From the NCBI GenBank assembly GCA_947034885.2, contig OX344749.2, positions 20,103,501 to 20,167,500 on the forward strand: a stretch of DNA of 64,000 nucleotides, given 5' to 3'. Under the pieces are notes generated by a model. That model did no database searches. It was not told where the DNA came from and saw only the letters and a list, made by a program, of their open reading frames with translations. Both the position numbers and the translations under genes were made by a program. Source of the DNA: Thuidium tamariscinum. Lineage: Eukaryota; Streptophyta; Bryopsida; Hypnales; Thuidiaceae. This document shows, in pieces, positions 11,358-64,000 of this stretch (the stretch's first letter is position 1; each line of letters starts with the position of its first letter).

Positions 11358-11627
11358 CCAACAAGGTTGTCAGCCCTAACGCATTGATAACTCTTGCAGA
11401 ATTCGAGCTCCACGTAGTGGAACTGAGATTTGTGGGTTGAGCATTGTCTAACGCGCGCCTTTGGTGATTGGCACCAAAATCTGTTGTGGGTTCTTAGCCT
11501 TAGTTTCCGTAGATATCCTCAGTGGAGTTGGCGTTGCTGTTGCTGTGGTTTGTTTGAGTGTTGTGTTTTCTCCGAGGTTGCGGTGAGCTTAGGGTTTGGT
11601 GGATTGGCAGTGGAGGGGGCAGCCAGC

Positions 11628-26229: not shown

Positions 26230-29200
26230 CTAAATTTAAAGGTTCTTTTCATGTTTAACCCTTTAAATTCTTTAACTATATTTACTTCAAAAATGGTAAA
26301 AAAATTGGCATTTCTAATACAAATATTAAATTCTCTTAAAATTGAAATAAATAACCATAGGATCTTGTAGTAAATGATTTGAGAACATGTGCAAAAAAAT
26401 TTAGAGTTTTTTACCATGTAGATTGCAACATAGTAGCATTTAAAAGCTCAAAAATCATTTTTTTACACTATAGATAGTAAGAGAGCTACACTTCAAATGG
26501 CAAAATCGTATTAAAAATGGTCCAAAATGGTTGTGTTTATTTGGATTCATTGTTTAGGCCAAGTAGGATACTTGCCTAAAAATTTCAAATTGTTTAGAAT
26601 TGTACAACATATAGAAAAAAAATAGTAAGTAAAAAGAAGTAGAAAATTATTCAAAATACAAAATTGTTAAGAATTTAATTATCAAATTGAAAAATGTCAA
26701 TCCCAGTGGTTGGAATATTGTAATAAACAATCTACATCCCATAGTTTTATTTTTTCAAAAAATATTGAAATTGAGTAAAATAAAGGATTTGAAAGTTTAT
26801 TTTAGAATAGAGAATCTATAATTGCCCACAAAGAAAAAAAATCATAACTTTTGACTCATTGATCAAAATGGAATGATTTAAAGCTTTCCATAAATAAATA
26901 AATGTAGAAAACTAATTTCAAATTCTTGTTTTGGGAAAAGTGATTTTTTTTCAATTTGTCCAAACTACTCAACTATGGAAAAAAAATAACATATTAGGCC
27001 ATATCTTTTGACTTGTATTTCCAAATGTCTTGATTTTTTGTACATATGAAAGAGAATTCCTTGTCCCCACTTTGTATTAAAATTAGGGCCCAAAATATGG
27101 AAATCTCCACTCACACGTACCTACCCAAAATTGCTATGTTGCCAAATTTAGCAAGCTGGTCCCTTAAGGTTTAAATTAGATGAATATTGATATTTTTAAT
27201 CTAAAACTATTGCTCTTAATTATCTACTTTCATTGTATTCTATCTTTTTTAATTTTTTTTAATTTTATAAAGTAAGTTATGTTACTAGAAAATTCTAAAA
27301 TTACATAAGTGATCTTGAGTTCAAAGTTGGATTTTAGTAAATTCTTAAAGGTCTTACTTAAACCTCTAATTTCTAACATAATTATGATTTCTATTGCAAG
27401 AGAAATAAAAAATTGCCAAATTTAAGAACATGACTAGTAATCCATTTCCACCACATCTCCATACTTCAACATGTGTGCTACAAGTGTATCTTGAGGCCTA
27501 TCTTCATCAATTTTTCTTACATTTTTTTGTATTTTCATATACAACTTAAATAACAACTTTTACAACAAGGTATATAAATTCTATCTATGATCTAGTCCTA
27601 TTTTGAAGCCTATGGTTTATTTCTTTACACTTCCCCTTTTGAATTTCTTCAACTTGTTTTTTATATTTTTCTTTTTTCTTCTATTTTTTGGCATATTTTA
27701 TAATTGCAATCTTTGACTTTTATTACTATTACTACTAACTAATTTATAGTTATTCTAGAAATCAAACAATTGTGATGACATAAGCATCATAAGTGCTAAC
27801 TAAGTATGTATTTAAGACTTCACAACTTCATTTGGTCTACTACACATGGGTAGTTGCAAGAAAGGGTGAACGGTTTTGTAGCGTTTTGGCAAAACTGGCT
27901 TTTGTCCAAGCTATAACTTTTGAGTTTTAAGCCCAACGCCAAAAGCTAAAAATATATTTCTAGATGTTTTGATTGAAATTGTATCACTTATTTTTCAGAA
28001 ATTTTCAAAAATAATTTTATATTTAAAAGTCAATTTCTCTAATTTGTCACACTTTCAATGTTTTTTGTTTTTTGTACCAAAAAGTATCCAAATTTAATTA
28101 TTTAGGAAAGAAATTTTGGTGGTCTATTCCTACACTAATTGGACATGTCCCATGGGAGGGGCATAAAAAAATACATTATTTTATGTCCTCCATGTTTGTC
28201 CAAATAGGCCAAAACAAAGGGTCCATTGCGCGCACACTTCTAAACATAGAAGATGGATTGAAGATCATTTTTTTGGTGAAATCTCATCACTATAATGTCC
28301 TTACAAATGGCCAGTTTTTAGATTTTTTAGTTCACTATAAGTATTTAATTAAAAATACAAACGTTGAAATACTCCTTTTCTACCTACAACTCTACATGTC
28401 CCAAAAAAGGAGTATTTCAACGTTTGTATTTCTAATTAAATACTTATAGTGAACTAAAAAAATCTAAAAACTGGCCATTTGTAAGGACATTATAGTGATG
28501 AGATTTCACCAAAAAAATGATCTTCAATCCATCTTCTATGTTTAGAAGTGTGCGCGCAATGGACCCTTTGTTTTGGCCTATTTGGACAAACATGGAGGAC
28601 ATAAAATAATGTATTTTTTTATGCCCCTCCCATGGGACATGTCCAATTAGTGTAGGAATAGACCACCAAAATTTCTTTCCTAAATAATTAAATTTGGATA
28701 CTTTTTGGTACAAAAAACAAAAAACATTGAAAGTGTGACAAATTAGAGAAATTGACTTTTAAATATAAAATTATTTTTGAAAATTTCTGAAAAATAAGTG
28801 ATACAATTTCAATCAAAACATCTAGAAATATATTTTTTGCTTTTGGCATTGGGCTTAAAACTCAAAAGTTATAGCTTGGACAAAAGCCAGTTTTGCCAAA
28901 ACGCTACAAAACCGTTCACCCTTTCTTGCAACTACCCACATACTATAATTAACAATCTTTGTTTAACCCCTAAAGGACCAAACTATGTTTTTTGGCAATA
29001 TAGTAATTTTGGGTAGCTCATTACAAATGAAGTTTTTCTTTTTTTTCCTTAAAATTTTCAAAAAACATGCGCCTAAGGAATATCTTTAAGGCCCAGTAAT
29101 TTTCATAATTTTTTACTACATAGTTAGAAGGTTATTGGATGATATGTGATTTTTGTTGTTTGGTGGGCAACCTAGGCAGCTCAAAAAACTTCTTTAGAGA

Positions 29201-43689: not shown

Positions 43690-46256
43690 ATGGCGTCTCT
43701 CACTGGTATGATTCAACTTGGGCAACACGACTGGTTTGCATTGAAATTCAACTGATTGGGGGATCCGTCTAATTGCCTCTCACTCCGGTGACGAACGATT
43801 CGTGTCTGTGGACGTGGGAGTCGGCATTGGGAGGGCGGTGGTTGATTTCGACTGATTTGGGTGTTCTTCTCTGAGAATTAGGGGTTTCGAAATGGGGTCA
43901 GGTAGCTATGGGTTTGGGAAGAGGCTCGGTGTGGGGATTTTCTGAAAGTTGTCGAGTTTGGTGCAGAGACAATTATGGCTGGACTAGCAGATGGCTCAGC
44001 ATTCTTCGAGTATGTTGACACTACCACGCCATCGTTCAATCTTCCCTTTGCTTCCGTTTCATCGGCTTTCTCTGGGTCAAGACCCAAGCAGTCGCTCTTT
44101 TTCGCCAGGATGGGGTTTTCTCGAGGGGCAGGGCAAGCTCGGTGAGGCCATTGGAAGACGCGTGCTCCGTTGTATTCGTCTGTTTTCGATTGGTTAGAAC
44201 AAGAGAATTGTCTGGCATGCTCGAGGGTTTAGGTTACAATGTGGTTGATGCAACAAGAGATGAAAATTAATTTTAGGGTTTTAGACAGGGTACGTCGCAG
44301 GCGCTGAAGAAGGTGGAGCATTTCACAGTGCGGAGAGTCGCCGGGGACGGGCGGTGTATGTTCAGAGCTCTTGTATGGCTTCCTTCTCTTGCGAGACTTG
44401 TCAGTTACTGTGCCCTTTACGACGGAGTTATAATGCCTTTTATTGTAAAGCTCGAAGTAATTGTTCACCGTTTTCATGTCGCGATTATGTGTGTCGCAGG
44501 TGCAAGGAATGGCTTTGAACAAAGGACTGAATCTGAATTCTACCGAGGAAGAGAAAGAGGCAGGTCAGTGCGGAATCGCTCATGAATGCGCCAGTTAAAC
44601 GCAGTTCTGAACGTTTCTTAGATGGTGGATATGAATCTTGTCTACTTTTTGTGGAAGGTCAATTATTTATGTGTTCTTGTTAGTAAATGAAAAGGGTTTC
44701 TAGCGCACCAACAAATGCGTTTCTTGGATATTGTATACATAATTTAGGTGTACTTATTACTGTTCAAAGTTTTGTTGGTAGATGAAGTTAAACCAAATTG
44801 AACGTGGGCTACATTTTCCTATTGCCCCTTGTCTAAGATTTTAGGATGACGATTTTTTCAGTGGATATTATGGGTGTCGCTACCTTAGCAAATTTGCGAA
44901 GCTTACCAGAAGGACCACTCGTGCTGGAGGTTCACAATTAGTTCATTCTGGCATGTTGAGTAAAATACATCGTTTTGACGTATCGTTTGCTGGGTCTCAC
45001 TTTTGATTGATCCGATATTTGGGGTTGGCTTGCAGATCAACTTCGATTTGCAGTCATGGACGCACTATGTAGAAGTGACAAACGGAGGTCCATATACGAA
45101 GAAGCTCTTATAGCCATCACAGTTGAGGAATCTTTAAAGCGGTGAGATATTCTAGAGCCGATTGTTCATGTACTGTGGAATGCTACTGTATTTTGTGGGA
45201 GCGATTCCTAGCTTTCGTGAACAGTGCAACAACTCCTATACCTTTTAAGTTCAGCCTGAATTGTACCCTTATGATCCCACATTTGATATCTCATGCCATA
45301 CTCGGAGTGGTTTATTGGGAGGATACCGTGGGTTTAATTTCTTATGGATGCTGAATTTTGCGTATTGTGGGACAGGTATTGCCAAAGGATTCCCAGTTCA
45401 AATTTCTGGGGTGGCGAATCAGAACTACTGGTTAGTGTTGATTCCTTCTTTCTGTACATACAAACCTCCTGCTCCCTATGGTGACGAATTTCTGTGTGCC
45501 TAAATTCGACTTTCAAATGCTGAAAAAAATTAGAATTAGAATTCGTGCTCAGATGGGGTTTTAGATGCCAAACTGAGAACACTGAGCTCTAAGAATCTAC
45601 TAGGACTAATATAGATCCGTGATTTCACCTAGTTGAGAACCATTTTCTGAGTACACCAATTTTGTGAATTACACCAATGTAATGAACATGATCATAAATC
45701 CTCGACCCACAAAATACTGTGATATGATCCCGCGGATTTTTGCTGCCCTTTTCTTAAGTGAGCTTGGGAATTCGATGTTGCATTTGTTAACGGTTTGGGC
45801 TACATATTTGCAGGTTTTGTCAAGAATGTGTTCTCAGCCAATAACTGTTTACATTCCTGAATCAGAGGTTAGATTATCAAAACCTCCTGAACTGCAAATT
45901 GTGTTCCTTTTTAGTTGGTTTTCAACCTCATGTACTTGTGGTTGAGAACGTGGATCCCATGATTTCTGACCATCAGGTTTCACTTCAAGAAAGCTTGTAA
46001 ATGTATTTTCCATGTTCCAGCTGACTGTGACCTTGGTGCACTCTTGCCATCAGCCCTGAATAAAGAAAGTCAGATTGCTGTGTTAACAATTCTTTTTTCA
46101 CGGTCGCAGGCAAAGCAGGGTGCTCGGTGGGGCACAGGATATATTCCAATCGCAGAGTACGGTTCTGAGTATACTAAGCCTCGCAAAGATAGGAAAGCTC
46201 GCAAGCCTGTGAGGCTCTTGTACAATGGAAGCAACCACTATGACCTACTTATTTGA
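43690..46256 (+). CDS. OTU-family deubiquitinase
   Basis: A 234-residue cysteine protease of the ovarian-tumour family, closest by eye to Arabidopsis OTU3 (At2g38025); it would cleave ubiquitin chains. Exons: 43690-43705, 43967-44141, 44285-44372, 44500-44563, 45036-45141, 45376-45430, 45814-45867, 46110-46256, all GT-AG and in frame. The OTU domain shows VAGDGRCMFRAL (catalytic D85 and C88), VQGMALNKGLNLNS, DQLRFAVMDAL, EEALIAITVEESLKRYCQRI, FWGGESELLVLSRMCSQPITVYIPE, GYIPIAEYGSEY and the C-terminal NHYDLL with catalytic H229. The N-terminal 65 residues are serine-rich and not conserved to my eye. The 16-nt first coding exon rests on a good initiation context and exact phase; if it is wrong, translation would start at 43975 (226 residues). 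Confidence 0.9.
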
Positions 46257-47978
46257 GCACGAGCTGCACATTCTTACCTCTCTGCAAAATCAAGCAATTG
46301 TTTGTAGATGGCACCATCTGTGTGCATGTTTGTACCACTGAAACTGGTTGTAAATTAAGAATTATTGTGAAGTAGAAGCAAAGAAGTTTACGGATGAATC
46401 AACCTGTTTGCGGTTGATGTTTTGGTGTGATGGATGTTGAAAATTTTGTTACTCATAATCAAAAAGCACTTCATTAAGTTGTGATTTTTTGTTTCCGTGT
46501 GTGTCGGACATGCTCAATGAGATTATTCTAGCATGCAACGCTTAGATTTGGTAATGCTAGGATGAACAGTAAAGTGACTCTCATACACTTCACAAATTTC
46601 CATAACTAAGGGAGAAACACCCATTCCCGTCCCTGTACCTTGCAGTGGAGTGTAGAGTCACTCAAATATGTCCCTAGAGTGTAGTTAATGTGTTTGACAC
46701 ATGTGTGAAAATAATTTGTTGACACAGGTGAAGGACACTTAAGAAAATCTGGTTGGCTCAGGGCTGATTTTCGCAGGGTTCAGTTTTGGGTGCACCTACT
46801 GGACACTTTCAGTGGTCTAGGCACCCATCACTTCAAAAAAACATAGAAATTACATACAATGCCCAAAAAATTAATTTCTTTTTTTGAATATTCATAATTT
46901 TCACTCGCTAATACTAGAAAAATATCAATTTTAGGAAAATCTCCCTCCAACTATGCTGAATTCCTTAAATGGACGGTTTTGGGTGTTTCCACTGTAATCT
47001 ACAAATTAAATCAATTTTACTATTTGAAAAAAACTTTTAATAAAGGTAAATGCTTTACGAAGTGTGACTTTTGTAATAAATTACTAAAAGATTGTAAATA
47101 TTTGAAACTATACTCGGAGTCAGTAAAATATCACTTAATAAAATTTCAAAACTCATGACATTCTCATAAAAATAATCTAAAAGAGTTGTCATTCCAATTA
47201 GTAAGGAATCTCCAAAAAAAACATTCCTTTTCAATAACAAACTTAATATTTCAGTAAAAAAACTAGAATCTACATTTTAAATTTGTTTAATGCACATATC
47301 ACATATGTCACAACAATTCCTATTTTGTTCGAAATCTCTACTTACTCCAATCCCTGAACTACCTAGTACCTACAGCAATTTCTGAGATGTTCTGATAACA
47401 CTGTCGAACTCAACAGAGAACTCTCCAATTCAAAGTCCTTGAAAAACAGATATAATCATGTGCCACAATGTCCGAGCACATCAAGAAAGTTGATCCCGCA
47501 GACCAGCGATGTGTCAAAGGTCCAGGATCCCTTTTTAGTTCCACTCACCACTCATTAAACTCTGATACTAGATACAAAACCCATGACATACAAGCCCACA
47601 AACAAGTCCAACCAGAAAAAAAGGACAACTGCGAACCTTCAAGCCCAAAAATTAAAAAACACCACCTGAGTACCAAATATGTAATAGTGCTCGAACCTTC
47701 GCTAATAAAAAGGCCAGGACAAAGAGAAGACACGGTTTCCCATCAGACACAACTGCCTTCCCCGGACTGGGAACGAAAATACAAACCAATGCGTGCCACA
47801 AAACCCTCAGAAAAAAATGCCAACAATATCAGCAGGTTCATCAACACAATTACCCACTAAACCACTCGCCACAAATTCCAGGAATTTAAACAATAACCTG
47901 AATTCTAGTAAATCACTAAATGCACTGAACCGCTGCATCAGACAATACAATCACTCAAGGTCATAACACAAACTCCCG
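46257..47978. other. Intergenic DNA left of the dyskerin palindrome
   Basis: OTU 3' flank followed by AT-rich DNA. An open plus-strand frame at 47468-47860 lacks any known domain and shows no coding bias I can recognise; I do not call it a gene. Confidence 0.4.
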
Positions 47979-48594
47979 TCGCAAAGAAAACAATCCACCA
48001 TACTCCCCAGGAAATGAACGCATACATCAACCTCACCAGAAAACACACTCAAACACGGACAACCGAGTTGCGGATCGTTGGAAACTTCTTCTCAGCTCAC
48101 TCCGGACCAAGAAGGAAGTGCTCAAAATCACCTTATTAAACAGGTTCGTAAATTGTTCGTAGTGGCCGACTTATCACATCATAATCTCACCACATCAGGC
48201 AGTCCGCCACAGTGAGATTCAAGACTGTCAAACCACGTCCAAGTGTAAAGCCCCGACAGCTCGAAAGCTCGGGCCGACACCGACACCGCCATCCCCGAGG
48301 GAGGGCAAGCCGCCGGTAACAGCAAAGGAGTGTATGCACATCAGGCCCGGCCAGCACGTGGAGGGGGACGAAGGAGGGACTCCCGAGTACCTAAAATACA
48401 CATACTGAAAGCCCCGTCTGAAAGCTAACGATCGACGTCACCACTGGTGACACCTCCCTCGATTCCAAGCCGACGGCACCGTCTGAAAATTGCCTCATCA
48501 TTCCCACAACCAAAATTCAAAGGCCAGCTGGATCCTGCACCCAGAAGTAACGTAAATCCTAACGAGAAAGCCTAAGAAAAAATTAATCAACGCA

Positions 48595-50265
48595 CTATTG
48601 ACCCGCTTCCGACGATTTCTTCTTCTTCTTCTTCTCACTCTTCTCTACACTAGCGGGAACGTCCTCCATCTCCACGTCCACGGATTTCGACTTCTTCTTC
48701 TTCTTCTTCTCCGTCGTGCCTTCGCCGTTCGAGACGGCGGCCTCGCCCTCCGCGTCGCTCTTCTTCGCCTTCTTCTTCTTGTGGGAAGCTTCAGGCGTTT
48801 GTTGAACGGGACTGACAGCTGCTTCCTTCGAACGCTTCTTCTCGCTCTTCGAACCATTCTCGGCCGCTTCGCCGACGGGAGTCGACGGCTCCGCTTTGCT
48901 CTTCTTCTCCTTCTTCTCCTTGGCAGGAGTTCCTTCCACGGCGGCGGCGACTTCCACGGGCTCCGCGGCTTCCTCCACCCGCTCGGGCTTCTTCGCAGGC
49001 GCTGAATCGAAAACGGGAACCCGAAGCCACTCCGCAGGCGTCTTCTCGTTCGGCTTGCCATGCTTGTCCAGAAGACCGTCGTTGATCATCTTCTTCTTCG
49101 TGCTCGCACGAGGACCCAGGCCCCACTTCCGCGGATAAGTGTCCCTCTCCATCACCACTCTCTTCACCTTCGCCACCACGCCGTGGTCGCACGTCGCCAT
49201 CACCGCAGTGGTCATCTGCGCCACGCCAATTGCGATGGCCTCGCCCTTCGTCGTCATCAAAACAACTTCCTCGCCCACCTCAATGCCTTGCTCGTACCTC
49301 AACAGACCCGGAATCATCAACTTCGCACCGTAGCAAATAGCGTTCACGGCGCTGTCCTTCACCACGCAACGCTTGTAGCTCGTCAAAAGAACCTCCAGAG
49401 GCATGATCACGCGACGCAGGTAGCTCTCGTCCTTGTGGTTGTCGTACACCCATTGCGCGTCCAAAACGTCGTGCATCGTCACCAGGTTGTCCTTCTCGCC
49501 CAAAATGCCAGACCTAACCCTACGAAGCTCCTGCATGTGACCGCCCACGCCCAAAAGAAGACCCAAGTGCACGCACAGCGTCCGAATGTACGTCCCGGCC
49601 TCGCAAGACACCCAGAACACCACCAAGTGACGCTCCGCGTCATACTCCAACAACTTGCTCTCGTAGATGGTGCGAATGCGCAGCTGACGCTTCACGGCAG
49701 AGATCAGCGGGGGCCGCTGAAACAGAGCGCCAGTTAGGGTTTCGATGGCCTGGGCCACCTTCGCCACGGACTCCACCGCGGAATGCAAACGCGCCACGCA
49801 CACGTACTCCTTGCCCGCGCCCTGCTGCGCCTTCACCAGACGCGTCGCGCGGTCCACGCACACAATCAAGCTGCCCGTCACCTTGGGATCCAAAGTCCCG
49901 CTGTGACCCGTCTTGTCCACGCGCAGCATGCGACGAATCCAAGCCACCACCTCGTGCGACGAAGGGTTCGCCGGCTTGTCCAAGTTGATCACGCCGTACC
50001 GCACGTAGTCGTGCAGCGGACGCTTCAGCGGCGTGTGCCCAGTCGGCAAAGGAGTGTAGTGACCCGTCCGCACGTTCAGCTTGTCGTAATTCTTCAGCAG
50101 AATTGGCCACTTCGAGGTGTCCAGCGGAGGCGTCGTCGACTGCGGCTTGATCAAGTAGTCCGTGTCCGCCTGCTCAGGGTCGCCCAACACCTGCTTCGTC
50201 GCCCCGTCCACATCCTCCTCGCGCGGCTTCTCTTTCCGCTTCTTCTTGCTCTCCGAGCCGGCCAT
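48595..50265 (-). CDS. CBF5: Dyskerin/CBF5 pseudouridine synthase, copy 1
   Basis: A 556-residue intronless dyskerin (plant NAP57/CBF5, about 565 residues in Arabidopsis), the catalytic subunit of H/ACA snoRNPs that converts uridine to pseudouridine in rRNA and snRNA and also binds telomerase RNA. Domains: basic N-terminus, dyskerin-like region (about 45-100, [23 protein letters not shown]... in part), TruB catalytic domain with [11 protein letters not shown] (catalytic D126), [26 protein letters not shown] and [19 protein letters not shown] domain (about 297-371), and a low-complexity tail from about 430 with many KKKKK runs, a nucleolar-localisation feature. The protein is identical to copy 2. 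The start is the ATG just downstream of a G-rich leader. Confidence 0.96.
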
Positions 50266-50435
50266 CGCTCTCCCCCGCCCCGCCCCTCCCCCAAACGAAA
50301 GCTTCGACCTGCTTATTGCACTCTAAAAACACCTAAAACCCCACTCACTGAAAGAATAGGCACTACTCCAAAGATTGAAGCTTTGGTGCAATTACTGGAG
50401 CTACGGCGCCAAGGAAGTCCGGAAACAGCGGAGAA

Positions 50436-50504
50436 TCAACGTCTGCACCGGACAAGAGGACATTGTGCGGGAGCAAGCACTGCGGCGTGAGACAGAACTG
50501 CCAT
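50436..50504 (-). other. Possible 22-codon uORF, copy 1
   Basis: Mirror of the uORF at 56804-56872. It is an ATG-initiated short frame (starting MAVLSHAAVLAPAQ) between the telo-box and the dyskerin start, ending before it. Whether it lies in the transcript depends on the true transcription start. Confidence 0.3.
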
Positions 50505-50543
50505 GCCTGCTACCGAGGAGAGCGAAACTGCAAGCTGGGGGAA

Positions 50544-50559
50544 TTAGGGTTTAGGGTTT
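50544..50559 (-). promoter_or_regulatory. Double telo-box in dyskerin promoter, copy 1
   Basis: AAACCCTAAACCCTAA on the minus strand, about 280 bp upstream of the start codon; typical of plant ribosome-biogenesis genes. Confidence 0.75.
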
Positions 50560-50769
50560 AGCGTTCGGAGCTGGCTGGCGCCACGGCATCTGAGCCGTCC
50601 GTCGTGGGGGGGTGCCTTTGATCAGTCCAGCCAGGAGATTTGAGATTTGAAATTCTGAAGAATGCTTGTACAATGTACACTCACAGGAAGGAGGAATATC
50701 TTTCTAGGTCAAGGGGTTTAGATCAGCGCTCTCAAATTTCAATTTCTGAAAGTAGTCACCAAATTTATA

Positions 50770-51089
50770 CTAAGGTAGGAGGTCCATAAAGCGACAGTCT
50801 CAGCGCTGAAGCTGAATTTTGGGGAGGGAAAACATCTTGAAATATTTTTCAATAAATTTTCTTTGAAAGACAAGTGGAAATGACATCCAACCTAAGTTGT
50901 TCCATATTTTTTGGATCTTTGTGGAATTCGTTATGAAATTTTGAAGTTGAAAGCCATAGGGCTCTAAAAGCGACCACCCCCTAAAATGTACACAATTTGT
51001 ACATTTTGGAATATTGCAGAAAGCGAAATGTACCTCTAAGCCATGTTTGGTTCTAAATGCCCTATCGGAGTTCGAGCCTCCTACTTTAA
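50770..51089 (-). mobile_element. 330-bp TIR family, copy B
   Basis: Same element as 56219-56538 by mirror symmetry. Its ends are taaggtaggaggtcc and, in inverted form, ttaaagtaggaggctcg. It lies about 500 bp upstream of dyskerin. The open frame of 112 codons across it is not a gene. Confidence 0.8.
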
Positions 51090-51565
51090 CTTGTTGGGGT
51101 AGGTGAAATTTGAAAAGTAGGATGAGGGTTTTCAACAAAAGATGCCCCCATAATTACCCAAATTACCCAAATTGCTCAAATTTTTTCACATAGTGTATCC
51201 TTTTATCTACACATCCAATCAAAATTTTCTACAATTCTCATGAAGAGAGTGAATAATTCAATCATGTATTTGTTTTCTTTTTGTCCTATATAAGATATTA
51301 TTTTTGCTCTTCCATATGCTTTTTTTATAGTTAACAAATATCAAGTAATTCTTTGGTATTAGATTGAATTAAAAAAATGTATAGATTTATTCATATCATT
51401 AAACCTTTGCTTTCATCTAGCTTGTAATGACTCGTATATGATTTCAACCAAATACTTAGGTAGGAGGCTCCTAAATGAATTAGCAAAGGAAAAAGAGGCT
51501 TCTCTTGGTGAATCACCAAAGCCAATCATGTCAAGAATTTTGTGGCACATGAAAAAGTGACAAAG

Positions 51566-54500
51566 CAGTTATTCACTTATTTTTTGAATGTTTTTTGAGT
51601 GTAATTGAAATATATACTTCATTTCAAAGTGACAAGGCTCCAACTCACTACACTTAAAAGGATATTTAGTATTGGATTACAATTAGTGTAATTACCACCC
51701 TACTCCACATAACACTAAATGTCAACTTTGAAGGAATTAGTGTAGTGTGCCCTAGGGAAACTTTTTAGGGTTTTTCTTTGAAAATGTTCCCAGTTTTGCA
51801 GACCAATCCCCTGTTGGTCTAAATTTTTGAATTTCGAAAAAATAAAATAAATTTTTTTTTTGAAAAAACTTCAGAATGTATTAAAAAGCAAGAAAATGAT
51901 TTTTAAAAATAATTTTTTTTCAAAAAAAGAATTTCAAAAAGTTCAATAATTAATTTCGTAAATTAATTAATTAGTACTTTCTGATGTAGCATTCACTTAA
52001 CCACATCAGCATAGTGTTACCATCGGTCCCAGCATTTGAGAACTTTTAGTCTTCTAACACTAAATGTAAACCTCTTCATATTTTAGAGTAACCACAAAGT
52101 ACTTTTAGTTTTAGAAATTAGATTTAATGTTACTTACTTTAGTAGGGTTAATGATATTTAGTGTCGTGGTTTGTAAATAGTGTTGCTGACACTAAATATC
52201 CTTTTTAGTATACCTATGCTTATAGGATATAAGACACTTGGATCAAAATTTGTCTTTATTTAGAACTATGATGTCCCAAAAGTAACTACATTGCTATTTT
52301 ATTGAAAATTTGGCACTTCATTGATTGATTGTTTTTATGTTATGGAAATAAATAATTGCACTACTATCTCACTCTTGATCTCATTGCACTTATGAGACCA
52401 ACAAATGTGATTTGTTTACTATCCTAGGATAAAACATGAGCATTTTGAGTTTTTGGTCAAGGAAAGGATGACCCATTTTTAGAACCTTGTACACAATTTT
52501 TGATTGATCTATTAGTTCATTCAAATGACCTAAAAAAATTCAAGTGTCCTATCCATTTATAGAACTTTAGTTATATTTTAAGATAAATGATTTTATATTT
52601 TAATCGATTTTTCTTTAACAAAATTTGAAGATGGATGAAAAGAAAAAGTTATTTTTGCAATAGAAATTGAAGTAGCAACTTCTTTTGCCAATCAAGAATT
52701 TTATTGTGGCAGTTTGAAGAAATCTTTAAACATTGATATGATGATTTCATAACAAGCCATTAATTTTAGGGGGTGAGATTATACTTGGAGCATTTACATT
52801 TTGGATTAATTTTAAATGGTTATGTTGCCAAGTTGGCAAAATCAAAGAAACAATACCATAGTAAATTGAGCGAACTACTATTCTTTGTCAGTGTGAGAGC
52901 AATTTGAAAATGTTAAACTTAATGAAGTATTTATAGAATACACTTCCATAAAATTCATTTCATTACTTTGTGTAATGACCTAGACTTGCATCCACCCAAT
53001 GCTAAAGTGAGAAAATTGTAAAAGACAATGAGCACATTTTAACACTATTTCTTTGGTGTAGCCATTGTGTAGTAGTAATTGAATGGTTATTGTTGAGGAG
53101 TCCATGTAAAGGCTCATTAGTTCCCTTGCTTGATAGCTACTTCAATCATTCAAATCTAGTGATAAATATCTAAAGAAATCACAAAATGAAGTTATCCTTG
53201 AAGATTTGTTTCGAAGCTTGCGACTACATCCAAAATACAAACTATTGTGAAACCCATTGAAGGTTGCTACCAAACAATCGTTATGTTTTGTACAATGGAC
53301 TTTGTATTACAATATGTTCAAAAATTAAGTGAAGCAAATGCCAACAATTCCTTTAGAGTCACTTGCATTTCATTACACTATCAAACAATAGTAGAAGCAA
53401 TTGTGCAATTGCAATTAGAAAAAAAAATCATTTGACTACATAAGACAATAGAAACATGATAGGAATCCATTCAAATACAATTTGAAGGTGAAGATTTGCA
53501 TCACAAAATCCCTCAATACAAACACCAATGTCATCCTATTAATGACAAAGGAGGTTTACTTGAAGCACTTCATCTTCCCAATAGCCTGGTTGCCATGACT
53601 ATAAGGATTCATCATTCTCACAAAAACCTCCACCTTCACAAGAATCTACAATATGTCATATTTAAGACTAGTGAGTGGAAAAAACATGGTTGAATTCCTT
53701 ATTTGGACAGATTGTATGCTTCCACCGTAGTCTCAATTAGAAGTGCAAACTAAATGAAATCAATATATAATATAGAATGTTGAAGAATTACTACATCTTT
53801 TTTCAAACCATAGACATACCATTTTCGAAGTTATTCCCTATATTCTAAACTAATATACTGCTTGTTGATTTTTCAATATTAAAAAAACATTTAAATACAT
53901 ACCTATTTAAATCATCAAAATTAATGAAATTAATTTAAAAAAATTAAAAAATTCCATTAAAATTATTATCTAACAAGGTCGTCTCTTGACCACATTAGAT
54001 TTCTAATGTGGTCAAATTTTTAGTCAAAAGGTTTATTTTTTGTCCATTAAATTTTTTTCATGTCGTGATATTGTCCTACATAGTTCAAGCCTTGTAATTT
54101 GCTAAATTCTCTTATTAAATAAAATTTGGCAACTGTCCCTTGTTGTTCAAGAACTCATAGTTTCTCTATGACTTGAACAAAATGTAATGCAAGGCTTATA
54201 TTGCAATTAAAATCTAGGAATTATTGCACTCAAAACAAAATAGATAAATAAGTACAAAATAAAAATTCAATTTAAGCAATCTCAATATTTCAAACTTGTA
54301 AACATCTTGTTTTATTGAAGAACTCTTCTTGAAAGTGAAGAGTCTATATTGTAGAAAGAATTGAGAGATTTCTATTGGTTTTCAAAGGGAATTGTACCTT
54401 GAATTTCTGGCATAGCAACTCCATAGTGAAAATATACAATGGCTCTTGCAACTCCAACAATTCTTCTTGAAGGAAAAATAAAAAAACAAAAAATTAGCAT

Positions 54501-55742
54501 TGCTGAAGCAGTTTACATGACCAAAAAAATAAGATAAAATTTGCTCAAATTGGGCAAAAAGAAGCTCCAAATCACTATGGATTGCAAAGTACTTTGAGAT
54601 TTGAATTGCCAACCTCAACCAAACACAGCTTTGTTTAGCTCATTGGCATGGAAGTTAGAATCCTACATTATGGTGTCCAAAGATTCATGCTAAAGAACAT
54701 GGCAAAGTGTCAAAATAACCACAAAAATTGACAATTAAACCCATTCCAACATCATCTTTCATACACACATCTTATATTATATGCAACTACCTTATTAAAG
54801 TAACAAATTTTTTTTTAATGAATATTGTAATAGAATTAAGTTTTTACAACACCTTGCTAGAATATGAGACCATTAAAAAAGGTACTTGTCCATGCATAGA
54901 GACCATTGGGCATCAGAGCTCATAAAATAGATTAGCTTTACATTTATGCCATTCATCCTAAAACCTATATGGAAATTCAATTTCAAATTGATTTCAAAAT
55001 TTCCAATTAGGCCCTCTACATTTATAATAGAAACCTTGTACTCTTTAGATGTTGCAGATCAACCAACAATTCAAATTCTTACAATCATACTTTGAAATAG
55101 TCCAATTCTATACAATAAGCTCCAAATGAAAGAGATGAAAGAAATTCATAAAAAACATCCAAACAAAAATCTAATTCAAATTGCAAGCTCAAAATACAGT
55201 GTGCATATATTTTTCCAACCTACAACAATTGAAAACAATTAAGTAATAGCATTCAAAAGGCAAAAAGTAGAAATAAGACCCCACAAGGTATATACCTCCC
55301 TAAACTAAAATTAGAGAACGCTATGAGCACTAATTAAAGCAATAATGGCAAAAATATGATAAACAATTGCACGCCGTTGGTGATTCCTAGTGCACATAAA
55401 TGCAAAATCAAAACAACAATGGTGATACACCAATTTTGTATAGAGCAGTTCAAACAAAGGAATGAGAGTCTCACGATAAATGAGGCAAAAATGGGCACCT
55501 AGGATGAAATGTTAGCAAAATCACCCTAAATTAGTGACTTGTCTAAAGCCAAAGTGGAACAAGTTAGTAAGGACCAAATACCAAAAAAATGGGTGACTTT
55601 TTCCTTAGTCACTTCTTAAAAAAAAATTTAACAAATAGAAGAACCTACTATATAAAGAAAAGAAACCAAAAACAAGACACTAGGCTGAATGTCGGCAAAA
55701 GAGACACAAACTACAGTGAGAAACCACTACATTGAAAAAGCA
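51566..55742. other. Spacer of the dyskerin palindrome
   Basis: A 4177-bp AT-rich spacer between the identical arms. No intact gene is recognised; frames at 53247-53693 and 54382-54925 have no known domain. It holds a diverged copy of the repeat at 34310-34610 (51760-52060) and a short hairpin, ttgaccacatta / taatgtggtcaa, at 53988-54017. Confidence 0.5.
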
Positions 55743-56218
55743 CTTTGTCACTTTTTCATGTGCCACAAAATTCTTGACATGATTGGCTTTGGTGATTCAC
55801 CAAGAGAAGCCTCTTTTTCCTTTGCTAATTCATTTAGGAGCCTCCTACCTAAGTATTTGGTTGAAATCATATACGAGTCATTACAAGCTAGATGAAAGCA
55901 AAGGTTTAATGATATGAATAAATCTATACATTTTTTTAATTCAATCTAATACCAAAGAATTACTTGATATTTGTTAACTATAAAAAAAGCATATGGAAGA
56001 GCAAAAATAATATCTTATATAGGACAAAAAGAAAACAAATACATGATTGAATTATTCACTCTCTTCATGAGAATTGTAGAAAATTTTGATTGGATGTGTA
56101 GATAAAAGGATACACTATGTGAAAAAATTTGAGCAATTTGGGTAATTTGGGTAATTATGGGGGCATCTTTTGTTGAAAACCCTCATCCTACTTTTCAAAT
56201 TTCACCTACCCCAACAAG

Positions 56219-56538
56219 TTAAAGTAGGAGGCTCGAACTCCGATAGGGCATTTAGAACCAAACATGGCTTAGAGGTACATTTCGCTTTCTGCAATATTCC
56301 AAAATGTACAAATTGTGTACATTTTAGGGGGTGGTCGCTTTTAGAGCCCTATGGCTTTCAACTTCAAAATTTCATAACGAATTCCACAAAGATCCAAAAA
56401 ATATGGAACAACTTAGGTTGGATGTCATTTCCACTTGTCTTTCAAAGAAAATTTATTGAAAAATATTTCAAGATGTTTTCCCTCCCCAAAATTCAGCTTC
56501 AGCGCTGAGACTGTCGCTTTATGGACCTCCTACCTTAG
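56219..56538 (+). mobile_element. 330-bp TIR family, copy C
   Basis: Left end ttaaagtaggaggctcg, right end (reversed) taaggtaggaggtccat; interior gtacatttt, tagagccctatggctttcaa, ccacttgtctttcaaag. Mirror of copy B and about 500 bp upstream of the dyskerin start. Confidence 0.8.
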
Positions 56539-56748
56539 TATAAATTTGGTGACTACTTTCAGAAATTGAAATTTGAGAGCGCTGATCTAAACCCCTTGAC
56601 CTAGAAAGATATTCCTCCTTCCTGTGAGTGTACATTGTACAAGCATTCTTCAGAATTTCAAATCTCAAATCTCCTGGCTGGACTGATCAAAGGCACCCCC
56701 CCACGACGGACGGCTCAGATGCCGTGGCGCCAGCCAGCTCCGAACGCT

Positions 56749-56764
56749 AAACCCTAAACCCTAA
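56749..56764 (+). promoter_or_regulatory. Double telo-box in dyskerin promoter, copy 2
   Basis: AAACCCTAAACCCTAA, two tandem telomere-type units, 279 bp upstream of the start codon. Such boxes are common in plant genes of the nucleolus and translation apparatus. Confidence 0.75.
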
Positions 56765-56803
56765 TTCCCCCAGCTTGCAGTTTCGCTCTCCTCGGTAGCA
56801 GGC

Positions 56804-56872
56804 ATGGCAGTTCTGTCTCACGCCGCAGTGCTTGCTCCCGCACAATGTCCTCTTGTCCGGTGCAGACGTTGA
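56804..56872 (+). other. Possible 22-codon uORF, copy 2
   Basis: An ATG in good context (ggcATGGc) opens a frame starting MAVLSHAAVLAPAQ and closing at TGA 56870-56872, 170 bp before the dyskerin ATG. It could dampen translation if it is inside the mRNA. Confidence 0.3.
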
Positions 56873-57042
56873 TTCTCCGCTGTTTCCGGACTTCCTTGGC
56901 GCCGTAGCTCCAGTAATTGCACCAAAGCTTCAATCTTTGGAGTAGTGCCTATTCTTTCAGTGAGTGGGGTTTTAGGTGTTTTTAGAGTGCAATAAGCAGG
57001 TCGAAGCTTTCGTTTGGGGGAGGGGCGGGGCGGGGGAGAGCG

Positions 57043-58713
57043 ATGGCCGGCTCGGAGAGCAAGAAGAAGCGGAAAGAGAAGCCGCGCGAGGAGGATGTGG
57101 ACGGGGCGACGAAGCAGGTGTTGGGCGACCCTGAGCAGGCGGACACGGACTACTTGATCAAGCCGCAGTCGACGACGCCTCCGCTGGACACCTCGAAGTG
57201 GCCAATTCTGCTGAAGAATTACGACAAGCTGAACGTGCGGACGGGTCACTACACTCCTTTGCCGACTGGGCACACGCCGCTGAAGCGTCCGCTGCACGAC
57301 TACGTGCGGTACGGCGTGATCAACTTGGACAAGCCGGCGAACCCTTCGTCGCACGAGGTGGTGGCTTGGATTCGTCGCATGCTGCGCGTGGACAAGACGG
57401 GTCACAGCGGGACTTTGGATCCCAAGGTGACGGGCAGCTTGATTGTGTGCGTGGACCGCGCGACGCGTCTGGTGAAGGCGCAGCAGGGCGCGGGCAAGGA
57501 GTACGTGTGCGTGGCGCGTTTGCATTCCGCGGTGGAGTCCGTGGCGAAGGTGGCCCAGGCCATCGAAACCCTAACTGGCGCTCTGTTTCAGCGGCCCCCG
57601 CTGATCTCTGCCGTGAAGCGTCAGCTGCGCATTCGCACCATCTACGAGAGCAAGTTGTTGGAGTATGACGCGGAGCGTCACTTGGTGGTGTTCTGGGTGT
57701 CTTGCGAGGCCGGGACGTACATTCGGACGCTGTGCGTGCACTTGGGTCTTCTTTTGGGCGTGGGCGGTCACATGCAGGAGCTTCGTAGGGTTAGGTCTGG
57801 CATTTTGGGCGAGAAGGACAACCTGGTGACGATGCACGACGTTTTGGACGCGCAATGGGTGTACGACAACCACAAGGACGAGAGCTACCTGCGTCGCGTG
57901 ATCATGCCTCTGGAGGTTCTTTTGACGAGCTACAAGCGTTGCGTGGTGAAGGACAGCGCCGTGAACGCTATTTGCTACGGTGCGAAGTTGATGATTCCGG
58001 GTCTGTTGAGGTACGAGCAAGGCATTGAGGTGGGCGAGGAAGTTGTTTTGATGACGACGAAGGGCGAGGCCATCGCAATTGGCGTGGCGCAGATGACCAC
58101 TGCGGTGATGGCGACGTGCGACCACGGCGTGGTGGCGAAGGTGAAGAGAGTGGTGATGGAGAGGGACACTTATCCGCGGAAGTGGGGCCTGGGTCCTCGT
58201 GCGAGCACGAAGAAGAAGATGATCAACGACGGTCTTCTGGACAAGCATGGCAAGCCGAACGAGAAGACGCCTGCGGAGTGGCTTCGGGTTCCCGTTTTCG
58301 ATTCAGCGCCTGCGAAGAAGCCCGAGCGGGTGGAGGAAGCCGCGGAGCCCGTGGAAGTCGCCGCCGCCGTGGAAGGAACTCCTGCCAAGGAGAAGAAGGA
58401 GAAGAAGAGCAAAGCGGAGCCGTCGACTCCCGTCGGCGAAGCGGCCGAGAATGGTTCGAAGAGCGAGAAGAAGCGTTCGAAGGAAGCAGCTGTCAGTCCC
58501 GTTCAACAAACGCCTGAAGCTTCCCACAAGAAGAAGAAGGCGAAGAAGAGCGACGCGGAGGGCGAGGCCGCCGTCTCGAACGGCGAAGGCACGACGGAGA
58601 AGAAGAAGAAGAAGAAGTCGAAATCCGTGGACGTGGAGATGGAGGACGTTCCCGCTAGTGTAGAGAAGAGTGAGAAGAAGAAGAAGAAGAAATCGTCGGA
58701 AGCGGGTCAATAG
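57043..58713 (+). CDS. CBF5: Dyskerin/CBF5 pseudouridine synthase, copy 2
   Basis: Identical in length and protein sequence to the copy on the left arm (48595-50265). Start ATG follows the leader gggggagagcg; no in-frame upstream ATG was used. Catalytic aspartate at 126 in [14 protein letters not shown] domain at about 297-371, lysine-rich tail to residue 556. Both copies keep full frames, promoter telo-boxes and 3' flanks, so both are predicted functional; the total lack of differences means the duplication is very recent, is homogenised by gene conversion, or is an assembly artefact. Confidence 0.96.
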
Positions 58714-59644
58714 TGCGTTGATTAATTTTTTCTTAGGCTTTCTCGTTAGGATTTACGTTACTTCTGGGTGCAGGATCCAGCTGGCCTTTGAATTTTGGTT
58801 GTGGGAATGATGAGGCAATTTTCAGACGGTGCCGTCGGCTTGGAATCGAGGGAGGTGTCACCAGTGGTGACGTCGATCGTTAGCTTTCAGACGGGGCTTT
58901 CAGTATGTGTATTTTAGGTACTCGGGAGTCCCTCCTTCGTCCCCCTCCACGTGCTGGCCGGGCCTGATGTGCATACACTCCTTTGCTGTTACCGGCGGCT
59001 TGCCCTCCCTCGGGGATGGCGGTGTCGGTGTCGGCCCGAGCTTTCGAGCTGTCGGGGCTTTACACTTGGACGTGGTTTGACAGTCTTGAATCTCACTGTG
59101 GCGGACTGCCTGATGTGGTGAGATTATGATGTGATAAGTCGGCCACTACGAACAATTTACGAACCTGTTTAATAAGGTGATTTTGAGCACTTCCTTCTTG
59201 GTCCGGAGTGAGCTGAGAAGAAGTTTCCAACGATCCGCAACTCGGTTGTCCGTGTTTGAGTGTGTTTTCTGGTGAGGTTGATGTATGCGTTCATTTCCTG
59301 GGGAGTATGGTGGATTGTTTTCTTTGCGAAGGGGTTGATTCCCGGATTTAATGGGACGGGATTTTCAGGGATGGGGAGCTTGGATGTCATTGTAGTTTTT
59401 CAGATAGTTCGTCGTTTGTTGGAGGCAGGTATGAAGATGGGAAATGTGGCTCTGGAGTGATTCGAGTATTGGGTCGTGACTTTATTTCAACCGGTGGTTT
59501 ACGGTTCAGTCACGGGCTTCGGTAATACTTTGAGAAGGTGATTGGAGAGGCGTGCTGTGATGTTTTACAGTTCTTCGTAATTGTTAGTGTTGCAGACAGG
59601 ATTTTTGTGTGTATTCAAATAGTGTTTTTGTTACCTGCGGAGAT

Positions 59645-59970
59645 GGTTAGGGAGGAGGTCCGTGAAGCGCCCATCTAAGAGCTGCAACTGAATTTCGGGG
59701 AGGTGAATCTTCTTGAATTATTTTTCAGTAAATTTCCCTTGAAAGACAAATGGAGTTGGCATCTTACGCAAGTTGTTGTATAATTTTTGGTGCTCTACAG
59801 AATTAGGTATAAAATTTTTGAAGTTGGAATGGCATTGGCCACCAAAGCCGCCCTCCCCTCAAATTTACATTGTTTATACATCTGAAAAAGGAGCATGTAC
59901 AGTACAAACTATGTACCTTTGAGAGCGGTCGTGGGTTCTGAGCTATAGTGGTCTTTGAGCCTCGTCCGTG
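59645..59970 (-). mobile_element. 330-bp TIR family, copy D
   Basis: Opposite orientation to copy C. Left end gggaggaggtccgtgaagcg, interior cttgaaagacaaatgga, aagttggaatggca and acaatgtaaattt-like stretch, right end gtctttgagcctcgtcc. Together with copy C it brackets the right-hand dyskerin gene. Confidence 0.7.
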
Positions 59971-60626
59971 GATTCTGTTGACCTTAGATTTGCATGTATT
60001 TCTCTCAATTCCTCTTGGACTTGAGGTTATATGTATTAACTATGCACTAAAGTTCCACCCACATCCATCTCCTAACCTTGTGCTTTATTTCAATTCATGA
60101 TTCTACAGGTCCTACACAAAGTAGACACTTTAGGTGTTGTAAAGTTATTTAAATTTTCATTGTGGGGTGACCTATGTTGTCTACATTGCACAACAGATTG
60201 TTGATTTTGTAGAACTTGAAAAAATTATTTCAGCTTTTTGTGTTGACTATATTGTGAATTGTGTTTTTTGTTTTGATTTGAAAAGACAATTCTTCATATA
60301 TAGAATGGTTGGTGAACAAAAGAGAAACAATGTGGCATATATCCATTAGTTCATAGTTAAAAAAAAACACTTGAAATCTTCATCTGTCCTAAACCCTCAA
60401 ATGGTTGCCTAAAACCCTAGTCATTCTCATGTCTGTTTTGTGCCGGAACTTGTAGAACAATGAAATTGTTATTGTGGTCCTGTAGTTTTGTTGGTGATCG
60501 TGAGCAATTCCCATCACTTGTGGGGCCCATTGGGTGGGCCCAAATTAACTTCTTGCAAATGTTCGTGGTAATAGAGGCCAAGACACTTTTCTCAAAAAAG
60601 TATGCGCAATACAATTGCACTAGTAT
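59971..60626. other. Spacer between TIR copy D and CAT gene
   Basis: No gene. The last bases probably include the CAT 3' UTR. Confidence 0.4.
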
Positions 60627-62620
60627 TTAAGTGAACTCTTTACAGGCCAAGACACTTTCCGTCCCTTTAGGCGATGAAGGGTTAATGTCAGCTTCAATTG
60701 CTACTTCCGCTCCCTTCAGATCTGCTGCTGCTGCTACCTCAGGTGAACCAACAGGCATTTCCATGGCAGCATCGTAAGAAGCATGCAAGCCAACAAATGC
60801 GTAGTAAACAACGATCAATGCTGTAAACGCTCCAAATCTCCAGAACGAATCTTTATCGATAGACCCCATGAGGAAAATGTTCGTGCCAATAGAGGCTGCT
60901 GGAAGCCAGGGGATCATTGGCACTCCCCATACCTTGGGTGTCCTCACAATCGGAACGAAGTACCACATCGACCAGGTTGCCGCCAACCAAATCGCCCCCA
61001 GAATCACCTGACCAAACCATTTGCAACAGCTTGGGAACGTCAGTCAGTCGTAACCTGTTGATGCGAATAATGTTCAAGCCTCTTACATGCACCTCAGCAA
61101 ATAATGGCGCGCAAAGGAACAATGTCTATGACAACCTGATAAATCACACAAGTAGAAGAAAATTTTGGTATCATTCATTCATGAATCTTATTATGAATTG
61201 ATGGATTTAGTTACGTTGCAGAAGTTGGTCGATCGATCACTTACATGACCCACCCACCCATCACTCAAAGCCCAGTAAGCTGCTATGCCAATCGACGAGC
61301 CGACGATAACAAGGATGAGGAAGATCAGAAGCCCTTGATGTTTCCTTGAAGTCTGTCCGGGCATGTAATGTCGTCGGACAAGCAACGCCACCGCCACCAG
61401 CATGAAAATCGAGAGTGTGCTGATGGAGAGAAGGTTGGACAGGACGCTCAAGCTGGTGAAGAACGTGATGAACGAGGTTATCACCAGGGGCATAATCGTT
61501 GCCCTAATGGGCGTCCCCGTGCGCTTGTTAATGTGTGCAAACCAAGGAGGGATCATATGTGTCCTTGCGATGTGGGTCACGTAACGCGCTTGGCTAACTG
61601 TACCCACAAGGAGCACTGTGGTCATCCCTTTGAGGGCTCCCAAAGCGATCAAATACTGCGCCCAGTGCCATCCAATGGACCGAAAGGCATACGAAAAGGG
61701 AGCATTGGGATCGATGGCCGTGTACTTCTGCATCAAGCAAAGAGTGAGCGCCATGAGGCAATAGATGATGGTGACCAGGACCATGGAGCCGACGAGGCCA
61801 ATGGGTATGTCGCGGGCAGGGTTCTTGGTTTCTTCAGCCAGAGTAGCGACAGCGTCAAACCCTAAGTACGCAAAGTAGACCGTGGCAGAAGCAGCAAAGA
61901 CGCCGCGTACTCCAAAGGGCATAAAGGGCTCGTAATTTGAAAGAGTGGAGTTGGAAAGACCAGCGACAATGATGAACGAGATGAGCAACATGTTGATTGA
62001 GGAGGCAATCCAGTTCAATGTGGACATGCCTCGTGTGCTGGCTGCTGCAATCAGGCCTGTTATCCAGACCACGACAACCGCAATGGGGTCTAGCATGTTG
62101 AAGTTTGGGGCAAGGTTGGTATGGATGCGAAGCTCATCTGGATGCTTGTTGATGAGAGTTGCAAAATAGGATGTCCAAGCCCTGGCAACGGCTCCAGTCC
62201 CCACTGCGTACTCCATCACCACATTCCCTGCAGCTATGAAGGCCACGAAGTCGCCCAACTCCACCCTCAGAAATGCAAATGACCCTCCTGCAACGCCAAG
62301 CCCCAAATTCAGCTAATGGAATATGAGCTCACAAATACTCCGAATGAACCTCAGATCATCAAGTTAGACCGTTGGTGGAGTCAATGCAGAAATTGATCAA
62401 GCAGCTAAGCAACTTGGTTTGCAAGTGTGCTGTCAATCGAGTAACTAACTTATGATGACCTTGCCTGCTGACGGAACTTCCAGAGCAAATTCGGTGTAGA
62501 TGAAAACTGAAAGCATGGAAGAAAAACCTGCCCCCACGTAGGACAGGAGTATAGCTGGCCCTGCCACTGATTGAGCTTGTTCGCCTGTTACCACAAAGAT
62601 TCCTGCACCCACCACGGCAC
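60627..62620 (-). CDS. CAT: Cationic amino acid transporter (CAT family), 5' end not seen
   Basis: Plant CAT-type APC-superfamily permease, moving basic and other amino acids across the plasma membrane or tonoplast. Visible exons in coding order: 62620-62465, 62287-61245, 61007-60627, giving about 525 residues. Matches: GAVVGAGIFVVTG, GPAILLSYVGAG, YTEFALEVPSAGGSFAFLRVELGDFVAF, GVFAASATVYFAYLGFDAVATLAEETKNPARDIPIGL, ALKGMTTVLLVGTVSQAR, RTGTPIRAT, then WGVPMIPWLPAASIGTNIFLMGS and GLHASYDAA, followed by an acidic cytosolic tail. About a dozen hydrophobic segments are present. The first intron (62464-62288) fits only with a GC donor (AG|GCAAGG); the others are GT-AG. The exon for the N-terminal cytosolic region and the first part of TM1 is not recognised upstream; it is beyond the window or in the repeated region at 62.7-64 kb. 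Confidence 0.92.
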
Positions 62621-64000
62621 CTGCCAAGAATCCGAGAATGCAATCCCGAGGTTGAGTAAGCATTCTCTGAGTCTACTCATGCGAAGGGTAAGTCCACAGA
62701 ACTTCTGGGCTAGTTTCAGATTGTGATAAATTCTCATGAGCTTGCGTCTGACTGAAATTGCAAGTTGATTTTGTGTAGCTAATGATGACCAATTTTGTTC
62801 TGAAATTTTCTGAAATGGCGCAGTGGTCTTGTGCATGTCTTGAAGTACATAAGAGTCAGCTTCGAGGGTTGTAAAGGTAGAGGGTACTAAAATCATGACC
62901 TCGGGACCCTCGTTACCAACGGCAACTCATCTATTCATACACCTATTGCAAGCATGAAAGCAATGGGCTTAATGTCTTCGATCACTCCTCTTTGAATGGA
63001 AACTATGGGTTTGTCTACTGTCAATTTAAAATGTCACTCTAGCCTACAACCTCCCGCATCGAAATCGCATAAGAAATTCTTACATTGAGATAACAATTAG
63101 TTCCGAGGAGAATTGGCTCTTGTACCCAAAGATCTTTGCACAAATCTCTGCATCTCGATCTCAAAACTCACACTCCAAATTATATCGGTTAAAGTTCTTA
63201 CTGAAACTAGTCACAGAGATAATATCCGGCAGTTTCTGCACTAGTTTCATATTGTGGTAAACTTTCATGAGTGATCGCACATGTTTGCGACTCAAATTCC
63301 AATTTATGTTTAGCTAATGATGGACAGAGCGCAATGCAAAGCCATGAGATGATACTTAAATTCTGAAATGAAACAACAGTCAAGTACAAATTAACTGTAG
63401 TGCTCAGGGTTGTTAATTACCTATAGAAAACCACGTCAAGTCCCACCAGTTTAGGGTTCGTTTCATCTCATTCTTGCTCCTCTGCACCAATTCGGTTGTC
63501 TCCGACTGCAATATTCAAAGTCCACAATTACTTAATTAAAAGCCCCAACAGGGTGAAGTCAAGCATAACAGATTAGATTTCAATTCTTTTTCTTACAAAC
63601 ATCATTGCAGCGATCTATCACGTCGACCCCAGCCAGTGTAATGTATGAAGGACACTAAAACCCGCATTAAGAAACCCGACTTCTGTTACCAACACCAACT
63701 CATCTCTTCCAAGACACTCGGTTAAATTGGCCCTCACTTAATTCGCAAGTTGGACTTGACCAGATGATCTTACAATGAAAAACAGGGCTGTTTACTATAC
63801 AATACAATACTCCGTACTAGTGTACAACCTCCCACTTCAAATATTTGCATTAATTAGAAGTTTATGCATAATGATATATCAATTAAAGTTGCCCTGGACC
63901 AAGAGAGATTGGCTCCTGTACACAAATTAAAGTGAGCTCTTCAGTGAGCTCAATCGAGTGTTCTCCTAAAGAAAGCACTCATACACACGTTTAAAGTGAC
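62621..64000 (-). repeat. Diverged tandem duplication in the CAT upstream intron or 5' region
   Basis: Blocks at 62690-62800 recur at 63225-63320 (gggctagtttcagattgtg/gcactagtttcatattgtg, tctcatgag/tttcatgagt, tagctaatgatg). Blocks at 62900-62935 recur at 63680-63715 (gttaccaac...caactcatct). Blocks at 63035-63125 recur at 63820-63925 (tacaacctccc, gagaattggctc/gagattggctc). So an old duplication covers this stretch. No coding exon is convincing; a frame at 62896-62588 only overlaps the splice acceptor. Confidence 0.55.

What the first reader, a model, noticed from the sequence alone, without database searches (positions are those of the whole stretch)
47979..59329. Identical inverted duplication of a complete dyskerin gene
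Two 3587-bp arms, with identity running straight through introns-free coding, promoter, 3' flank and a MITE, surround a unique 4.18-kb spacer. Dyskerin is normally a single-copy essential gene with dose effects on rRNA modification and telomerase. The options are a very recent duplication, arm-to-arm gene conversion as in chromosomal palindromes, or misassembly. In a living genome the spacer should flip by recombination between arms.
Basis: partly seen in the sequence, partly recalled or inferred. Interest (0 to 1): 0.85.

Follow-up and report, generated by a model that had tools for sequence, protein, structure and literature searches.

The report
Recent inverted copy of dyskerin gene
In what looks like a moss genome, the essential dyskerin gene appears twice as perfect mirror-image copies, most likely because a 3.6-kb piece was recently copied backwards next to itself, which is a known kind of genome accident.

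Summary
Two arms (47979-51565, 55743-59329) are exact reverse complements over 3587 nt around a 4177-nt spacer. They carry the only two dyskerin (CBF5/NAP57) genes found in a 363-Mb genome with 11 large contigs, probably a moss. Both ORFs are intact and head to head. Plant CBF5 genes normally lack introns, and identity runs through both flanks, so this is no retrocopy.

New evidence gives a polarity. A dispersed repeat (51455-51632) crosses the left arm/spacer junction; 18 of 21 other listed copies extend at least 29 nt past that point. In the right arm it is cut at the junction: 0 of 21 reach more than one base beyond. The left inner junction is old, the right one new.

Best reading: a recent inverted segmental duplication, made by backward copying during repair or by a staggered-break inversion; the outer junctions do not separate these. 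Zero differences suggest an age under roughly 0.1 million years (recalled rates) unless gene conversion resets it. Misassembly cannot be excluded without reads. The kind of event is known; interest is moderate.

The parts
47979..51565 (-). Left arm, 3587 nt, with dyskerin on the minus strand; its inner junction is the old one
   Evidence: exact match to the right arm; repeat intact across 51565|51566
55743..59329 (+). Right arm, 3587 nt, with dyskerin on the plus strand; its inner junction is the new one
   Evidence: exact match to the left arm; repeat cut at 55742|55743
51566..55742 (.). Spacer, 4177 nt, G+C 0.30 against 0.51 in the arm
48595..50265 (-). Dyskerin (CBF5/NAP57) ORF, 556 aa, intact, no intron
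57043..58713 (+). Dyskerin ORF, second copy, identical
51455..51632 (+). Dispersed repeat of about 178 nt that crosses the old left inner junction; 21 other places listed
55743..55853 (-). The same repeat in the right arm, cut at the new junction
50771..51088 (.). MITE-like element in the arm with inverted ends, upstream of the gene
50545..50552 (-). Telo-box (AAACCCTA on the gene's strand), about 280 nt before the start codon; name and role recalled
51647..52212 (.). Dispersed element in the spacer; 43 listed matches, some of them pieces of one copy
53053..55127 (+). Spacer stretch with a collinear relative at C1:39589982-39591762 (four pieces, 71-83% identity)
55627..55739 (+). Spacer end similar (77%) to C5:16524492-16524604, ending 3 nt before the new junction

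Best explanation
A recent inverted segmental duplication. The ancestral chromosome had one dyskerin gene whose promoter side ran into the present spacer through the repeat at 51455-51632. A 3.6-kb stretch with the whole gene was then duplicated in reverse orientation at the far end of the spacer. The route I think likeliest is repair synthesis with a template switch at a broken end (MMBIR-like or fold-back priming): the broken spacer end primed on the nearby strand, copied backwards through the gene, and was joined to the right flank. A staggered-break inversion that duplicates the same segment gives the same inner junctions and is included in this reading as the second route. Shown: exact arms, abrupt ends, old left inner junction, new right inner junction, no third copy found. 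Inferred: repair pathway, order of steps, recency, and activity of both genes.
For: 3587 nt identical with abrupt ends. A dispersed repeat crosses the left inner junction: 18 of 21 other listed copies extend at least 29 nt past it. At the right inner junction 0 of 21 extend more than one base past it. Alignment with four of the 21 copies. Two dyskerin genes and no third. Spacer not palindromic and once in the genome as a whole. No flush direct repeat of 2-11 nt between spacer end and right flank. Weak hint of fold-back priming: 7 of 9 in-register matches just beyond the new inner junction, about 1% of random position pairs; two other measures gave 3% and 5%, and the measure was picked after seeing the sequence. 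No difference over about 2300 near-neutral sites: upper age 65-130 thousand years for rates of 1e-8 to 5e-9 (rates recalled).
Against: Three of the 21 repeat copies stop within 6 nt of the left junction point. Under the inverted-copy model without loss of sequence the new junctions share only 0 and 1 nt (sequences printed), so a template switch is not demonstrated. The matches at the outer junction are unremarkable by count (17% of random pairs; a run of three in the first four bases, 3%). No repeat crosses the outer junctions, and skew continues on both sides. No reads, related genome or expression data were available. Total identity also fits misassembly or gene conversion.
Confidence: 0.66

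Rival explanations
1. Assembly error: one real dyskerin locus is present and the second arm is a misjoined duplicate.
For: Not one difference in 3587 nt; no reads to check; G000 is known here only as an assembly.
Against: The spacer is not palindromic, as a simple fold-back read would make it, and occurs once; flanks 44500-47978 and 59330-62500 each match the genome in full only at this locus; 234 kb around hold no gap letters.
Confidence: 0.16
2. Older palindrome whose arms are kept identical by gene conversion, as in sex-chromosome palindromes; the spacer flips from time to time.
For: Identity over the whole arm including non-coding sequence.
Against: No eroded margin at any arm end; nothing here shows an age beyond that implied by identity.
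Confidence: 0.12
3. Staggered-break inversion (or inverted copy followed by a flip of the spacer): the right outer junction is the old one and the spacer is inverted relative to the ancestor. This is a route within the best explanation and its share is counted there too.
For: Gives the observed old left inner and new right inner junction; such duplications at inversion ends are described (PMC7584159, passages seen).
Against: Needs a 3.6-kb stagger; no evidence favours the right outer junction as old.
Confidence: 0.22
4. Copy carried by a mobile element or a retrocopy.
For: Repeats are frequent around the locus and one lies at the arm end.
Against: No further copy of the arm; no flush target-site duplication; the new end lies inside a repeat rather than at its end; identity reaches 1.3 kb upstream and 0.6 kb downstream of the ORF.
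Confidence: 0.02

Closest known systems
Inverted duplications by backward copying or staggered breaks, Drosophila subobscura O7 and AttA2 (PMC7584159, passages seen)
   Same: A gene duplicated in inverse orientation around a spacer, explained by template switching with backward copying or by staggered breaks; the spacer there inverted later.
   Different: Plant genome, essential RNA-modification gene, identity still complete, ancestral arrangement unknown.
Fold-back inverted duplications of the human genome (PMC3907307, title and start of abstract in the listing)
   Same: Inverted copies attributed to a fold-back mechanism.
   Different: The abstract speaks of large duplications with many genes; this one is 3.6 kb.
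Sex-chromosome palindromes (PMC3403216, title and start of abstract in the listing)
   Same: Inverted duplicates holding genes, open to conversion.
   Different: Short arms here, no sign of a sex chromosome tested, conversion not shown.
Plant CBF5/NAP57 (dyskerin)
   Same: Domain order and intron-free gene (PMC8910892, passages seen).
   Different: Two identical copies here.

Membership tests
Dyskerin/CBF5/NAP57 | DKCLD, TruB_N, TruB_C_2 and PUA domains in order | tested here: met
   all four above the Pfam cut-off
Dyskerin/CBF5/NAP57 | Catalytic aspartate in the G-T-L-D-P motif (motif recalled) | tested here: met
   motif begins at residue 123
Dyskerin/CBF5/NAP57 | Intron-free gene in plants | tested here: met
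   one 556-aa ORF; survey statement in PMC8910892
Recent inverted segmental duplication | Two inverted copies alike through non-coding flanks | tested here: met
Recent inverted segmental duplication | A new junction that interrupts older sequence | tested here: met
   repeat intact at the left inner junction, cut at the right
Recent inverted segmental duplication | Single copy in close relatives | not testable with these tools
   G000 has no relatives in the genome search (stated)
Template switch (MMBIR-like) | Microhomology at the new junctions | tested here: inconclusive
   0 and 1 nt shared under the no-loss model; 7 of 9 in-register matches nearby, post hoc
Staggered-break inversion | Spacer inverted relative to the ancestor | not testable with these tools
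   outer junctions gave no answer
Conversion-maintained palindrome | Duplication older than the identity of the arms suggests | not testable with these tools
   needs relatives or population data
Retrocopy | Copy limited to the transcript | tested here: not met
   identity continues 1300 nt upstream and 616 nt downstream of the ORF
Transposon-borne copy | Target-site duplication at the copy's ends | tested here: not met
   no flush repeat of 2-11 nt between spacer end and right flank

The most novel reading that the evidence does not exclude
A small autosomal palindrome in a moss in which the essential dyskerin gene is kept as two identical copies by arm-to-arm gene conversion, with a spacer that flips in the population, so that the dose of the H/ACA enzyme and telomerase partner is doubled and shielded from mutation in a haploid plant.
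Probability: 0.08. Interest if true: 0.6.

Novelty: new member of a known kind. Interest (0 to 1): 0.33.

Why it matters
If real and recent, it is a clean natural case of how a small inverted gene duplication arises: identical arms, base-exact breakpoints, and a repeat that tells the old junction from the new one. It also doubles a gene for rRNA pseudouridylation and telomerase that is embryo-lethal when lost in Arabidopsis (PMC8910892, passage seen), so tolerance of a doubled dose could be tested directly. [quoted passage not shown] The event type itself is well known.

Tried and rejected
Retrocopy: rejected, identity runs through both flanks. Mobile-element capture: disfavoured, no further copy of the arm and no flush target-site duplication. 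Which outer flank is ancestral: tried with repeats across the outer junctions (none found), with the relative of the spacer end on C5 (neither flank continues it) and with strand skew (continues on both sides); unresolved. The relative of the spacer at C1:39.59 Mb gave no gene order, and the protein search found no dyskerin there; a short weak match of 63044-63170 to that locus was not pursued. AATAAA on the gene's strand: not found in 47401-48595 or 58713-60700; plant site II motif: not found in 50266-51565. The 'flush' value of the script is zero by construction, because the arms were already extended to their last identical base; I do not use it. Species: (listings) and the review PMC13120521 (passages) showed no moss genome of 363 Mb; the name stays unknown. 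No paper on dyskerin duplication in mosses appeared in the listings; only openly licensed PMC papers are held. The first alignment of the junction repeat had rows in the wrong orientation and was replaced.

Full report
What is there. The window holds an inverted repeat with arms 47979-51565 and 55743-59329. They are reverse complements over 3587 nt without one difference, around a spacer of 4177 nt (searches list the same pair with slightly extended ends). Chance is excluded. The reported coordinates are exact.

The gene. Each arm has one intact 556-aa ORF, 48595-50265 on the minus strand and 57043-58713 on the plus strand, so the genes stand head to head. The protein has all four dyskerin domains above the Pfam cut-offs and the G-T-L-D-P motif (motif recalled). 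Human DKC1 is the best of 13 PDB sequences listed at E up to 1e-20. The arms include 1300 nt upstream of the start codon, with a telo-box about 280 nt upstream, and 616 nt beyond the stop codon. Both copies therefore share the near promoter; expression was not tested.

Copy number. Searches of the whole 363-Mb genome with the protein (50 of 50 candidates scored) and the DKCLD profile (3 of 3 scored) found these two copies and no third. The arm DNA matched 41 places: the two arms and 39 places matching only the MITE-like part, 38 at 91-94% identity and one shorter at 78%. There 40 of 4413 candidates were scored, so the element count is a lower bound.

The host. There are 11 large contigs (54.2, 47.9, 47.4, 32.5, 30.6, 29.1, 28.8, 25.7, 24.9, 24.3, 17.5 Mb) and eight small ones, and contig C1 ends in a TTTAGGG array. 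Straminergon stramineum, a hypnalean moss, has 11 pseudomolecules, of which the first six are 47.5, 46.5, 45.4, 27.6, 27.4 and 24.6 Mb (PMC11992514, passages seen). I infer a moss of that kind; the species was not identified. Plant CBF5 genes have no intron in all species that one survey examined (PMC8910892, passages seen).

Polarity of the event. A dispersed repeat lies at 51455-51632 and crosses the left arm/spacer junction at 51565|51566. One search (query 51100-51646) listed 23 places: the locus itself, the right arm, and 21 others. Of these 21, 18 extend at least 29 nt past the junction point and three stop within 6 nt of it. One search (query 55500-55990) listed 24 places: the locus itself, the left arm, one match to the spacer end on C5, and 21 to the repeat. 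None of these 21 extends more than one base past the right inner junction. The alignment with four of the 21 copies shows the left copy continuing in register with its relatives and the right copy departing at the junction. So the left inner junction is older than the duplication, and the right inner junction was made by it.

What this does and does not settle. In one route the left gene is the original and an inverted copy was placed between spacer and right flank. In the other, a staggered-break inversion, or an inverted copy followed by a flip of the spacer, makes the right outer junction the old one. No repeat was found across either outer junction. Strand skew of the gene's 3' side continues on both sides. 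The spacer end resembles C5:16524492-16524604, but neither flank continues that similarity. Both routes stay open.

Mechanism. There is no flush direct repeat of 2-11 nt between spacer end and right flank. If no sequence was lost, the new junctions of an inverted copy share 0 nt (inner) and 1 nt (outer) with the sequence they replaced (letters printed). Just beyond the inner junction 7 of 9 positions match in the register of the arms, as in about 1% of random position pairs; two other measures gave 3% and 5%. At the outer junction the count of matches is ordinary (17%), with a run of three in the first four bases (3%). These measures were chosen after seeing the sequence, so they are a weak hint of fold-back priming and no proof. 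[quoted passage not shown]

Age. With no difference over about 2300 near-neutral sites the 95% upper bound is 65-130 thousand years for rates of 1e-8 to 5e-9 per site per year (rates recalled, not specific to this plant). Gene conversion between arms would make this bound void.

Misassembly. No reads were available. Against it: the spacer is not palindromic and occurs once as a whole, the flanks match in full only here, and 234 kb around the locus hold no gap letters. For it: the absence of even one difference. I give it 0.16.

Neighbourhood. In these 234 kb, 14 inverted pairs or palindromes of at least 250 bp and within 50 kb were listed, and this one is by far the longest. The only other pair that I looked up in the genome, 868 bp at 99% identity outside the window, belongs to a repeat family. 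The remaining ones were not classified.

Verdict. A real feature of the sequence as given, best read as a recent inverted segmental duplication of an essential gene. The kind is known; the clear old and new inner junctions make it a tidy example.

Noticed in passing
C1:20072926-20073791 and C1:20080262-20081129, about 30 and 22-23 kb left of the window (L022, L023): Two copies of a repeat in inverse orientation are 99% identical over 868 bp, while the other places listed for its first 575 bp are at most 89% alike (40 of 5203 candidates scored): a second recent inverted pair, or a local transposition.
   Followed up: partly
27847-28938: A near-perfect palindrome of about 1.1 kb, 97.8% identical to its own reverse complement, perhaps a fold-back element.
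   Followed up: no
46606-46996: An element of about 390 bp with 39 other places listed at 96-99% identity (40 of 3290 candidates scored), which suggests recent activity.
   Followed up: no
21791-21873: A SNORD24-like snoRNA, just over the Rfam gathering score (41.5 against 41).
   Followed up: no
11427-13610: An HSP70 gene in one open frame of 728 codons.
   Followed up: no
60630-62312: Open frames of an amino-acid permease gene on the minus strand, converging on the right dyskerin copy; Pfam was run on 61191-62213 only.
   Followed up: no
53053-55127: About 2 kb of the spacer has a collinear relative of 71-83% identity at C1:39589982-39591762; no conserved frame stood out, so its nature is unknown.
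   Followed up: partly
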